Assembly (NCBI GenBank): GCA_031265725.1 | Contig: JAISCH010000300.1 | Location: forward strand, 1 to 12,619 | Direction: 5' to 3' | Source: Propionibacteriaceae bacterium | Lineage (GTDB): Bacteria > Actinomycetota > Actinomycetes > Propionibacteriales > Propionibacteriaceae | DNA: 12,619 bases | Shown here: positions 7,242 through 9,423 of the stretch, one piece after another | Layout of the letters: each line of letters begins with the position of its first letter | How positions within the stretch are numbered: the stretch's first letter is position 1 | Translations under genes and position numbers: made by a program | Notes under the pieces: model-generated | What the model saw: only the letters and a program-made list of their open reading frames with translations | Databases searched by the model: none | What the model was told of the DNA's origin: nothing

Positions 7242-8165
7242 ATGCAGCGCATCTCAACGTTGAGAGTGTCCCCGTTGTGCCTGGGCGGGAACGTGTTCGG
7301 CTGGACTGCCGACGTACCCACCTCCGAGGCGATCTTGGACGCCTACCTGGCCGGAGGCGGGAACTTCATCGACACTGCCGACACCTATTCCACCTGGGTT
7401 CCCGGCCATCCAGGCGGTGAGTCCGAGCGCATCATCGGCAACTGGCTGCGCAGCCGTAAGCATGACGTCGTGCTGGCCACCAAAGCGGGCAAGCACCCGC
7501 AGCGGCGCGGGCTGCGGCCGTCCAATCTGCGAGTCTGCCTGGACGGCTCCCGGCGACGGCTCGGGCTGGAGACGATAGACCTCTACTACGCCAACGCCGA
7601 CGATCCACATGTGCCCGCCGAGGATTGGCTGGGCGCTTTCAACGAGATGATCACCGAGGGCTTGATCAAGCACTACGGCCTGTCGAATTTCAGCGCCGAC
7701 CGGGTGCGCGAGGTGTGCGGAATCGCCCAGGCCAACAACCTCGTCCTGCCGGTTGCGGTGCAATCCGAGCATAACCTCGTCCACCGCAGTGATTTCGAGG
7801 GCGGCCTGGCCGAGGCTGCCGCAGAGTACGGGCTGGTGCTGGTCCCCCATTCCGGGCTCGCCTCCGGCTTCCTCACCGGGAAATACGACCGGGCGGAGCC
7901 TCCGCACGGGCCACGGGCCGGATGGGTAAAGCGCTATGCCACTGAAGCGGGTTTCCGGGTGGTCGATGTCCTGGTCAGCATCGCCGACGCCCATGATCTA
8001 GAACCGGCGACCGTCGCCCTGGCCTGGCTCCGGCAGACCCCGCAAGTGGTCTCCCCGATAGCCAGCGTCTCCGACCCGGAACAGTTGCCCGCCCTGCTGC
8101 AAGCGATGACCCTCCGGATCACCAAGCCCCAGTTCAACAAACTCTCCAAGGCCCTGACCGCCTGA
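7242..8165 (+). CDS. Aldo/keto reductase family protein with Asn in place of the catalytic His
   Basis: A 307-residue TIM-barrel protein of the NADP(H)-dependent aldo/keto reductase superfamily. Catalytic positions: D44 and Y49 in FIDTADTY, K81 in LATKAG, and the fourth position is N118 (IDLYYANADDP) where most members have His. The potassium-channel beta subunits (AKR6) also carry Asn there, so redox activity may be retained but slow. Later landmarks are GLIKHYGLSNFSADRVREV, QSEHNLVHR and the cofactor-phosphate region TPQVVSPIASVSDPEQL. AGGAAC lies 6 nt before the ATG at 7242, so it has a Shine-Dalgarno start within the operon led by the SIMPL gene. The substrate is unknown. Downstream it faces the vapBC cassette tail to tail; I see no strong terminator in 8166-8224. 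Confidence 0.9.
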   Translation: MQRISTLRVSPLCLGGNVFGWTADVPTSEAILDAYLAGGGNFIDTADTYSTWVPGHPGGESERIIGNWLRSRKHDVVLATKAGKHPQRRGLRPSNLRVCLDGSRRRLGLETIDLYYANADDPHVPAEDWLGAFNEMITEGLIKHYGLSNFSADRVREVCGIAQANNLVLPVAVQSEHNLVHRSDFEGGLAEAAAEYGLVLVPHSGLASGFLTGKYDRAEPPHGPRAGWVKRYATEAGFRVVDVLVSIADAHDLEPATVALAWLRQTPQVVSPIASVSDPEQLPALLQAMTLRITKPQFNKLSKALTA

Positions 8166-8226
8166 GCACCATCCCAACTCTACGATGTGGGGCTACTCGC
8201 CACCCATGAACAGTTTTGCCCGCCTC

Positions 8227-8253
8227 ATTCGACTGAACCCTCGATCTGCTGAG
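8227..8253 (-). repeat. 27-bp direct repeat, copy 1 (detached hsp20 3' end)
   Basis: Exactly identical over 27 bases to 8997-9023, the last codons of hsp20. On the minus strand this copy still reads QQIEGSVE and is followed by TGA, but has no hsp20 body in front of it. It begins 8 bases after the vapC stop codon. Together with copy 2 it brackets the vapBC cassette. Confidence 0.9.
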
Positions 8254-8261
8254 TGTCCGGC

Positions 8262-8666
8262 TCACACTTGGACGACTCGTATCTCTGGGCTGGATAGCAG
8301 TAACGACATATCACCAACATCAGCAGTCAGGATCACTGCGGGAGCATATTCCATAGCTGTGGAGGCGACAATCGCATCCACTGTCAAATCACGCTTCTTG
8401 CGACGCACCGACTCGGCGTGTTCACGCAACGCTCCAGCCCGGGCCGCGATACGTGCGGTGGCATCACAAACCACCAATCTGCCCAAAGTGTGCCAGTGGG
8501 CGGCATCGTTCGCTTTTCCAGTCATGACCTCAGCCAGCACCACAGTGGGCACCACCACTCGTTGATCATTCGCCAACGCAGCCATCAAAATCACTTGGCC
8601 ACTCGGCTCCTGGCGGGAAATCGAAGAAAACGCGGCAGAATCAAGGATCAGCGTAGGTCCGCTCAC
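8262..8666 (-). CDS. vapC: PIN-domain toxin, VapC type
   Basis: A 134-residue single PIN domain, the fold of VapC toxins that cut RNA with Mg2+. Likely metal-binding acids are D9 (LILDS), E46 (VVLAEVM), D97 (LTVDAIVAS) and D116 (ILTADVGDM), the expected four-acid layout. The GTG at 8666 overlaps the TGA of the upstream antitoxin gene by 4 bases (GTGA), the normal coupling in such pairs. The open frame reaches further up to 8837, but that part overlaps the antitoxin gene in another frame and is not real. RNA target unknown. The gene ends 8 bases before a stray copy of the hsp20 3' end. VapC naming is by fold and partner; it may belong to a neighbouring PIN-toxin subfamily. Confidence 0.85.
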   Translation of the reverse strand: MSGPTLILDSAAFSSISRQEPSGQVILMAALANDQRVVVPTVVLAEVMTGKANDAAHWHTLGRLVVCDATARIAARAGALREHAESVRRKKRDLTVDAIVASTAMEYAPAVILTADVGDMSLLLSSPEIRVVQV

Positions 8667-8890
8667 GCCAACTCCCGCGCCCGTTTCTCCACTACATCCA
8701 TTGGAACAGGCCCGTTGGCTTCTTCCATCTCCTGAATCAGCGCGGCAAGATTGTCCCGCTCGACCTGGCGTCGCAACGCTTGGGACACATAAGTCGACTG
8801 CTGTCCCCTCCCGGCGAAACCCTCCACCTGCGTCCATAGCTCAAACGGTATGGTGAACGACTTCCGGACGTAATCAGTTTCAGCTTGCAT
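8663..8890 (-). CDS. vapB: Ribbon-helix-helix antitoxin, VapB type
   Basis: A 75-residue antitoxin. The N-terminal half is a ribbon-helix-helix DNA-binding unit (strand VRKSFTIPFELW at 8-19, then helices through STYVSQALRRQVERDNL, 32-48). The acidic C-terminal part with ANGPVPMDVVEKRARELA would wrap around and neutralise the PIN toxin. The ATG at 8890 is preferred over 8905: a TATTAT hexamer lies exactly 6 bases in front of it (leaderless), and the upstream start would place part of the operator inside the gene. It is first in the cassette and overlaps vapC by 4 bases. It probably represses its own promoter through the 17-bp palindrome at 8898-8914. Confidence 0.83.
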   Translation of the reverse strand: MQAETDYVRKSFTIPFELWTQVEGFAGRGQQSTYVSQALRRQVERDNLAALIQEMEEANGPVPMDVVEKRARELA

Positions 8891-8896
8891 GCACCA

Positions 8897-8914
8897 ATAA
8901 TACAACCAGTATTA
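8897..8914 (-). promoter_or_regulatory. vapBC promoter -10 and autoregulatory operator
   Basis: The palindrome TAATAC-N5-GTATTA (8898-8914, perfect 6-bp arms) overlaps the -10 hexamer TATTAT (minus strand, 8902-8897), which is followed by six bases and the antitoxin ATG. A ribbon-helix-helix dimer bound here would block the promoter, the usual toxin-antitoxin autoregulation. Binding itself is inferred. Confidence 0.6.
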
Positions 8915-8944
8915 CTCAGCCAGGCTAGCTTGCAGTGAAAAGTA

Positions 8945-8987
8945 AGAGGCCGCGCCAATGAGCGGCTTGGCTCAAGGCGCGACCTCT
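8945..8987 (-). terminator. Terminator hairpin of hsp20
   Basis: Seven bases after the hsp20 stop, arms 8976-8987 and 8945-8956 form a 12-bp stem with one G-U wobble in the minus-strand transcript, plus an inner 5-bp stem (TGAGC/GCTCA). The 3' side runs into TTACTTTTC, so this is a good intrinsic terminator. The arms match the recO-pdtaR hairpin at 5560-5610. Confidence 0.75.
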
Positions 8988-8994
8988 GCGGATG

Positions 8995-9423
8995 TTATTC
9001 GACTGAACCCTCGATCTGCTGAGCGGTGTCGGCGTGGGTCACTGCGATCTTGCGCGGCTTGGCCTCCTCAGCCACTGGAATCGTCAGCTCTAAAACGCCG
9101 TCGGCGTAGCTGGCCTCGATCTTGTCGAGGGCGACTCCGTAGCCCAGGGTCAATTGCCTAGCGAAGGTGCCGGACGGACGTTCCCGGACCAGCCATTTCT
9201 TGTCTTGGGCTGGAATGGCGGCCCGCTCGGCGCGGACGGTCAGGGTACGTTCGTCAACATCAACGTCGATAGACGCCGGATCGACTCCGGGTAGATCGAT
9301 CTTGGCCACAAAAGCGTCGCCTTCGCGGTAGAGGTCCATCGGCATACCATTGCTCGCCGGGGTCCGGGAGAAGTCCCCAATCCAACGGTCCATCTCACGG
9401 AACGGATCAAATGCGCGTGCCAT
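8995..9423 (-). CDS. hsp20: Small heat-shock protein (Hsp20 family)
   Basis: ATP-independent holdase chaperone, 142 residues. The alpha-crystallin domain covers about 28-125, with IDLPGVDPASIDVDVDERTL cut here as IDLPGV and LTVRAER, and the typical ADGVLELTIP at 108-116. The C-terminal IxV motif for oligomer contact is IAV (126-128). I chose the ATG at 9423 because AGGAG stands 7 bases upstream and MARAFDPFREMDRW is a family-like N-terminus; the frame is open to 9480. Upstream are a perfect CIRCE and a near-consensus HAIR box, so control by HrcA and possibly HspR is expected. Its last 27 bases recur exactly at 8227-8253, beyond the vapBC cassette, suggesting that the cassette inserted at this gene's end. 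Confidence 0.95.
   Translation of the reverse strand: MARAFDPFREMDRWIGDFSRTPASNGMPMDLYREGDAFVAKIDLPGVDPASIDVDVDERTLTVRAERAAIPAQDKKWLVRERPSGTFARQLTLGYGVALDKIEASYADGVLELTIPVAEEAKPRKIAVTHADTAQQIEGSVE
8997..9023 (-). repeat. 27-bp direct repeat, copy 2 (3' end of hsp20)
   Basis: This is the genic copy: it codes for the last eight residues of Hsp20 and reaches the first base of the stop codon. It is identical to 8227-8253 and in the same orientation, 770 bp apart. Beyond the exact match a further dozen bases look related only with gaps. Confidence 0.9.

What the first reader, a model, noticed from the sequence alone, without database searches (positions are those of the whole stretch)
8227..9023. 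vapBC cassette bounded by a 27-bp exact direct repeat of the hsp20 3' end
The last 27 coding-strand bases of hsp20 (8997-9023) recur exactly at 8227-8253, in the same orientation, on the far side of vapBC. The stray copy still codes QQIEGSVE and is followed by a stop, as if the gene end had been regenerated when a roughly 770-bp unit came in. Integration at a gene's 3' end with restoration of that end is typical of site-specific elements, but these usually carry an integrase and use tRNA genes. Here the unit holds only the toxin-antitoxin pair, its operator and a terminator hairpin. It could be a non-autonomous cassette that uses an sHsp gene as attachment site, or a duplication-mediated capture.
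Basis: partly seen in the sequence, partly recalled or inferred. Interest (0 to 1): 0.75.

Follow-up and report, generated by a model that had tools for sequence, protein, structure and literature searches.

The report
vapBC insertion duplicating a heat-shock gene end
A small bacterial toxin-antitoxin gene pair sits between two genes that are usually neighbours, with an exact 27-letter copy of one gene's end on its far side, a readable trace of how such gene pairs may enter chromosomes.

Summary
In detail: the hsp20 end (8997-9023) recurs exactly at 8227-8253, 770 bp away, around vapBC; about 2e-8 such pairs are expected by chance. vapBC is an insertion: in 17 genus relatives AKR and hsp20 are convergent neighbours without vapBC, 55-124 bp apart in 14. 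A site-specific cassette with hsp20 as attachment site is not supported: no integrase in the unit, no second case at hsp20, 27-mer absent from 29 other genus genomes. In 16 of 17 relatives a long hairpin fills the gap; here it lies beside hsp20, not beside the stray copy. Best reading: a one-off, integrase-independent insertion that duplicated target sequence. A lead from the controls: in eight related genomes AAA/DUF4143 ATPase genes often lie between direct repeats of 30-113 bp (11 of 58 loci; background 14 of 795 windows; p 2.9e-4 without the five cases that prompted the test), some of them copies of neighbouring gene ends. For PIN-toxin genes the excess is weak and does not survive stricter counting.

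The parts
8227..8253 (-). stray copy of the hsp20 3' end (27 nt), followed by TGA
   Evidence: exact match to 8997-9023
8997..9023 (-). hsp20 3' end copy in the intact gene, followed by TAA
8262..8666 (-). vapC-like toxin gene, PIN domain, GTG start overlapping vapB by 4 bp
   Evidence: PF01850 E 7.7e-7; frame read
8663..8890 (-). vapB-like antitoxin gene (ATG at 8890; the ORF could start at 8905)
   Evidence: position and overlap; relatives beside vapC relatives; no family hit
8898..8914 (.). operator-like palindrome TAATAC-N5-GTATTA upstream of vapB
   Evidence: read from the sequence; function not tested
8945..8987 (-). terminator-like hairpin with T-rich tail just after the hsp20 stop
   Evidence: fold z -5.3 on the hsp20-sense strand; z -4.6
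8995..9423 (-). hsp20 (small heat-shock protein gene)
   Evidence: PF00011 E 5.7e-21
7242..8165 (+). aldo-keto reductase gene (AKR), the usual neighbour of hsp20
   Evidence: PF00248 E 3.1e-60; synteny in 17 relatives
8166..8226 (.). AKR-side flank of the stray copy, without the hairpin seen in relatives

Best explanation
A vapBC pair entered the conserved AKR-hsp20 junction without an integrase of its own, and the event left 27 bp of target sequence, the hsp20 end, on both sides. Shown: the insertion relative to relatives, the exact direct repeat, the absence of a recombinase gene in the unit, the lower G+C of the insert. Inferred: the route. I think host recombination or break repair with a small incoming fragment or circle that already carried the hsp20 end and its terminator beside vapBC is most likely. 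A single crossover of a circle through 27 bp, or joining at a staggered break, gives this layout. The repeat would also allow precise loss of vapBC. Similar events may have placed other single-gene modules in related genomes.
For: AKR and hsp20 are convergent neighbours without vapBC in 17 genus members; removing the unit gives a 59-bp gap, typical of them. Insert G+C 56.7%, GC3 of vapC 0.57 and vapB 0.66 against 0.71-0.83 in five neighbouring genes. No integrase in the unit; the 27-mer not in 29 other genus genomes. Repeat-flanked modules in related genomes have repeats of variable length and identity, unlike one fixed attachment core. An 88-nt, 91% repeat of a gene start flanks another vapBC pair (L237/L225).
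Against: One case only at hsp20. No same-species empty site; the closest relative (G021) has no AKR there. The hairpin is on the hsp20 side, which a simple displaced gene end does not explain. None of 33 other vapC loci has a spanning repeat above 16 nt. PIN loci are not clearly enriched: 4 of 57 against 17 of 796, p 0.046; without the dispersed repeat L180, p 0.14; against the unfiltered background, p 0.16. No other PIN or DUF4143 locus fetched from the window's own genome has such a repeat.
Confidence: 0.5

Rival explanations
1. Site-specific cassette: a non-autonomous unit with a 27-bp attachment core in the hsp20 3' end, integrated by a recombinase acting in trans and restoring the gene end.
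For: Exact direct repeat at a gene's 3' end, coding capacity restored; a tyrosine recombinase gene exists in the assembly.
Against: That recombinase looks like the housekeeping XerD/XerC. No second site or cargo, nothing in phage or plasmid records by VapC or viral contigs. Hairpin on the wrong side.
Confidence: 0.13
2. Two-step capture: vapBC entered beyond the old hsp20 terminator, and the 27 bp next to AKR are a short templated copy made from the nearby hsp20 end during repair.
For: The terminator-like hairpin stays beside hsp20, as in 16 of 17 relatives it lies in the AKR-hsp20 gap.
Against: The stray copy ends exactly in a stop (TGA) and lies 59 bp from the AKR stop, close to normal gap lengths, which looks like an old gene end.
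Confidence: 0.22
3. Assembly artefact: a misjoin at a shared 27-base word in a fragmented draft genome.
For: The assembly is 59.7% complete in 368 contigs; no reads were available to me; 27 bp is within the word size of some assemblers (recalled).
Against: A misjoin at a shared word needs that word at both ends of the vapBC piece already. AKR on one side and hsp20 on the other are the neighbours seen in relatives.
Confidence: 0.08
4. Homologous replacement from a relative whose hsp20 is already followed by terminator and vapBC, with an illegitimate join inside the recipient's hsp20 end (homology-facilitated illegitimate recombination).
For: Such joins are described for transformable bacteria (passages of PMC2884548); the terminator would travel with the donor's hsp20 end.
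Against: hsp20 identity to relatives shows no sharp step towards the 3' end; no donor with hsp20-vapBC order was found.
Confidence: 0.07

Closest known systems
Chromosomal TA pairs in intergenic regions, e.g. ccdO157 between folA and apaH (review PMC7167474, passages read)
   Same: A TA pair present in some strains between two core genes that are otherwise neighbours; the review says the mechanism of integration remains unelucidated.
   Different: The passages read mention no duplicated gene end; here both junctions carry an exact 27-bp copy.
parDE-like TA pair beside MaOC1 in Microcystis aeruginosa PCC 7806 (PMC7935541, abstract and passages)
   Different: The repeats there are 152 bp, lie outside the neighbouring gene and contain inverted repeats; here 27 bp of coding sequence.
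Small variable segments in E. coli and other species (PMC2884548, passages)
   Same: Small strain-specific segments between conserved genes; about 10-18% flanked by direct repeats, mostly under 30 bp, ascribed to illegitimate recombination.
   Different: There the repeats are read mainly as deletion sites; here the repeat is a copy of a gene end around an inserted gene pair.
Integrase-driven islands in gene 3' ends, mostly tRNA genes (recalled)
   Same: Gene end restored, direct repeat at both ends.
   Different: No integrase in the unit, no recurring site found, unit under 1 kb.

Membership tests
Site-specific integrative element | own or cognate integrase | tested here: not met
   no recombinase in the unit; only a XerD/XerC-like gene found elsewhere in the assembly; a partner in the missing 40% of the genome cannot be excluded
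Site-specific integrative element | direct repeat core at both ends with restored gene end | tested here: met
   27 of 27 identical, QQIEGSVE plus stop in both
Site-specific integrative element | same site used again by other copies or cargo | tested here: not met
   0 of 29 other genus genomes with the 27-mer; 0 of 38 other hsp20 rows with a duplicated end
Site-specific integrative element | excised circle and closed site | not testable with these tools
   no reads
Transposon or IS | terminal inverted repeats and transposase | tested here: not met
   no inverted repeat at the unit ends; no transposase in the unit
VapBC type II toxin-antitoxin | PIN-domain toxin | tested here: met
   PF01850 E 7.7e-7
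VapBC type II toxin-antitoxin | overlapping upstream antitoxin gene of a known family | tested here: inconclusive
   overlap seen, VapB-like relatives beside VapC relatives, but no Pfam or NCBIfam hit
VapBC type II toxin-antitoxin | toxicity neutralised by the partner | not testable with these tools
   needs expression in a laboratory strain

The most novel reading that the evidence does not exclude
In a group of Propionibacteriaceae genomes related to the window's, single-gene modules (AAA/DUF4143 ATPases, and some vapBC pairs including this one) behave as integrase-free mobile units that insert beside gene ends and leave long direct target duplications of variable length (27-144 bp). The window's vapBC would be the cleanest small example, and the DUF4143 ATPase may itself help integration.
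Probability: 0.2. Interest if true: 0.8.

Novelty: new variant of a known kind. Interest (0 to 1): 0.5.

Why it matters
A review states that how toxin-antitoxin pairs move between hosts and integrate remains unelucidated (PMC7167474, passage). Here both junctions of an apparently recent entry are readable and relatives show the junction without it, so proposed routes make different, testable predictions. If the pattern around DUF4143 ATPases holds, a common gene family without an assigned role gets a first clue: it moves as a single-gene unit and duplicates its target.

Tried and rejected
Chance repeat: rejected, about 2e-8 expected. Known phage or plasmid cargo: VapC by tblastn gave no match in 50,697 phage and 72,556 plasmid records; DNA of 8100-9100 gave none in plasmids; the 20-base core and VapC gave no relative in viral contigs. 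Dispersed repeat: the 27-mer shares no 14-mer with 1.2 Mb of related sequence; the repeat in L180 does, so I do not count L180 as a target duplication. Homology running past the 27 bp with gaps: 20% of random positions align as well, rejected. General rule that TA pairs carry gene-end repeats: not supported. 33 other vapC loci have nothing above 16 nt, and with a 16-nt threshold toxin loci are not enriched (5 of 123 rows, at least nine places counted twice; background 103 of 1410).

Counting notes. In one search two control rows (L016, L023) are boundary artefacts and were ignored. In one search, background windows whose repeat encloses a DUF4143 or PIN gene were left out of the hits (8 of 22 and 11 of 28). 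With them kept, the DUF4143 p-values are 4.8e-7 and 0.002 instead of 1.6e-8 and 2.9e-4, and the PIN excess vanishes (0.16). Windows overlap and many background contigs were chosen because they hold PIN genes, so p-values are approximate. The eight genomes for DUF4143 (G000, G011, G013, G014, G017, G020, G021, G024) and for PIN (G006 in place of G011) were picked largely for having many such genes; no tree was built. Fetched: 72 of 106 PIN matches and 58 of 78 DUF4143 matches in those genomes by the tables; short end-of-contig hits were mostly passed over. A 34-nt repeat at L336 (truncated locus, spacing 2299) is outside the 1900-bp limit. The clade-versus-other comparison used 20 other loci by mistake; with 45 and 22 untruncated loci it is p 0.086. 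In one search three DUF4143 queries were in the wrong frame; one search repeats the test.

Full report
What is there. The window is one 12,619-bp contig of a draft genome, 59.7% complete, 368 contigs. The closest named record carrying this hsp20 is a Propionibacteriaceae metagenome genome, Md513_bin89, 84% protein identity. Around the finding the order is SIMPL-domain gene (+), AKR (+, 7242-8165), vapC (-), vapB (-), hsp20 (-, 8995-9423), ABC permease and ATPase genes (-). The 27 bases at 8997-9023, the hsp20 end, recur exactly at 8227-8253. The stray copy reads into TGA, hsp20 into TAA. vapC ends 8 bp before the stray copy, and vapC and vapB overlap by 4 bp. An operator-like palindrome lies at 8898-8914 and a strong hairpin with a U-rich tail at 8945-8987, directly after the hsp20 stop.

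It is an insertion. Of 60 relatives searched for hsp20, 47 had a match. In 17 genus members whose loci I read, AKR lies convergent to hsp20; gaps are 55-124 bp in 14, and 185, 323 and 590 bp in three; VapB and VapC found no match in those loci. In the window the gap is 829 bp; without the 770-bp unit it would be 59. The closest relative, G021, has another gene there and no AKR in the stretch read, so the empty sites come from more distant members. The insert is lower in G+C (56.7%; GC3 of vapC 0.57, vapB 0.66, against 0.71-0.83 in five neighbouring genes).

Is it a site-specific cassette? The 27-mer occurs twice in the own assembly, in none of 29 other genus genomes at up to 3 mismatches, and its 20-base core in no viral contig. 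None of 38 other hsp20 rows (35 distinct loci, three contigs being fetched twice) has a second copy of its gene end downstream; the longest exact share was 11 nt. The unit has no recombinase; the assembly has one tyrosine recombinase hit, XerD/XerC-like. No VapC relative was found in phage or plasmid records. I therefore do not file it as a site-specific element.

Which copy is original? In 16 of the 17 relatives the AKR-hsp20 gap holds a long hairpin (stem score 14 or more; the exception is G020; two long gaps were read only to 200 bp), while the window's AKR-side flank has none (score 7, shuffle mean 7.5) and the hairpin is next to hsp20. If the stray copy were simply the old gene end with its old flank, a hairpin would be expected there. 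Either the incoming piece brought hsp20 end, terminator and vapBC together and this lineage's own flank had lost its hairpin, or vapBC entered beyond the old terminator and the 27 bp are a templated copy. The stop after the stray copy and the 59-bp distance favour the first; the hairpin favours the second. Neither is settled.

Is the signature general for toxin genes? Among 33 other vapC loci of family and order no direct repeat above 16 nt spans vapC. PIN matches are many in the window's assembly (17) and in some relatives (12-22 in eight others), against 0-3 in 15 of the remaining 21. Of 72 PIN loci fetched from eight genomes, 5 have a spanning repeat of at least 20 nt and 85% (4 of 57 with at least 700 bp on both sides); background 17 of 796, p 0.046. 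One of them, L180, is a dispersed repeat; without it p is 0.14, and against the unfiltered background 0.16. Another, L222, has its first copy at the very start of a contig. The clearest is L237 (same place as L225): an 88-nt repeat, 91% identical, covering the start of a gene that reads like trmB (name recalled), on the far side of a vapBC pair, unit 887 bp. With a 16-nt test there is no excess.

An unexpected lead. Reading the background regions, I saw long repeats around one kind of gene: AAA ATPases with a DUF4143 domain (PF13635). 5 of the 6 such genes in those regions are flanked: 113 nt (L241), 30 nt exact (L238), 108 nt (L240), 32 nt exact (L250), 36 nt exact (L264), units 1379-1647 bp. 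Over 58 loci of eight genomes the count is 11 (11 of 48 with full flanks) against 14 of 795, p 1.6e-8; leaving out the five that prompted the test it is 6 of 43, p 2.9e-4, or 0.002 against the unfiltered background. Among 23 loci of other genus members one had a 22-nt repeat; the difference from the eight is not significant (p 0.086). Duplicated pieces include gene 3' ends (L240, L313), a palindrome like a terminator (L250), and the sequence just after a biotin-carboxylase-like gene (L264). Other background repeats of similar length enclose neither gene kind, among them 87 nt around a putative lipoprotein gene (L252). For the L240 and L313 genes, 11 best-matching loci in relatives show no DUF4143 gene in the stretch held, and one, in the window's own genome (L367/L305), has its own DUF4143 gene in the other relative orientation; orthology was not tested by a tree and a divergent DUF4143 could be missed. 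5 of the 11 cases come from one genome, G013, and none of the 10 DUF4143 loci fetched from the window's own genome shows a repeat. A full-text search for DUF4143 together with direct repeat found no paper in the open PMC set held here.

How it most likely works. Repeat lengths (27-113 bp for the window and the DUF4143 cases, up to 144 for one PIN case) and identities (about 87-100%) vary, unlike the fixed duplications of most transposases or the core of one integrase (recalled). Two routes fit: a single crossover of a small circle that carries a piece of the target, or repair of a staggered break around an incoming fragment. Mismatches between coding copies of three cases fall at third positions in 10 of 18, p 0.043, a weak hint of a diverged donor; L313 alone (3 of 7) looks like neutral decay. 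I commit to integrase-independent insertion by host recombination or repair at 0.5. The function of VapC and VapB is inferred from family and layout only.

Noticed in passing
L241:11230-12732, L238:5534-7210, L240:7615-9251, L250:530-1940, L264:3660-5207, L313:1070-2748: AAA ATPase genes with a DUF4143 domain flanked by unique direct repeats of 30-113 bp in genomes G013, G021 and G017, several repeats being copies of a neighbouring gene's end.
   Followed up: partly
L237:13238-14212 (G013:C160): A second vapBC pair flanked by an 88-nt, 91% direct repeat of a neighbouring gene's start, unit 887 bp.
   Followed up: partly
own assembly G000 and genomes G009, G011, G013, G014, G020, G021, G022, G024: PIN-domain genes are many (12-22 matches) in these genomes against 0-3 in 15 of the other 21 of the genus; DUF4143 genes are many in G000, G011 and G013 (14-15).
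   Followed up: partly
L305 and L367 (G000:C1): The window's own genome has a DUF4143 gene downstream of the best match to the gene whose end is duplicated in G013 (L240), in the other relative orientation and without a repeat, which may mean one spot was hit twice.
   Followed up: partly
L018 (G005:C202), AKR-hsp20 gap: The gap is 323 bp and repeats the AKR end sequence around a stretch of N, possibly a scaffolding artefact.
   Followed up: no
L180:1656-2784 (G021:C35): A repeat flanking a PIN gene belongs to a dispersed repeat family of that genome.
   Followed up: partly
L048 (G000:C186:1454-1840): A second vapBC of the same subfamily (VapC 58% identical) in the own genome, without flanking repeats.
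   Followed up: yes
L252:9611-11832 (G021:C16): An 87-nt, 97% direct repeat encloses a 568-aa putative lipoprotein gene, so the pattern may not be limited to toxins and ATPases.
   Followed up: no
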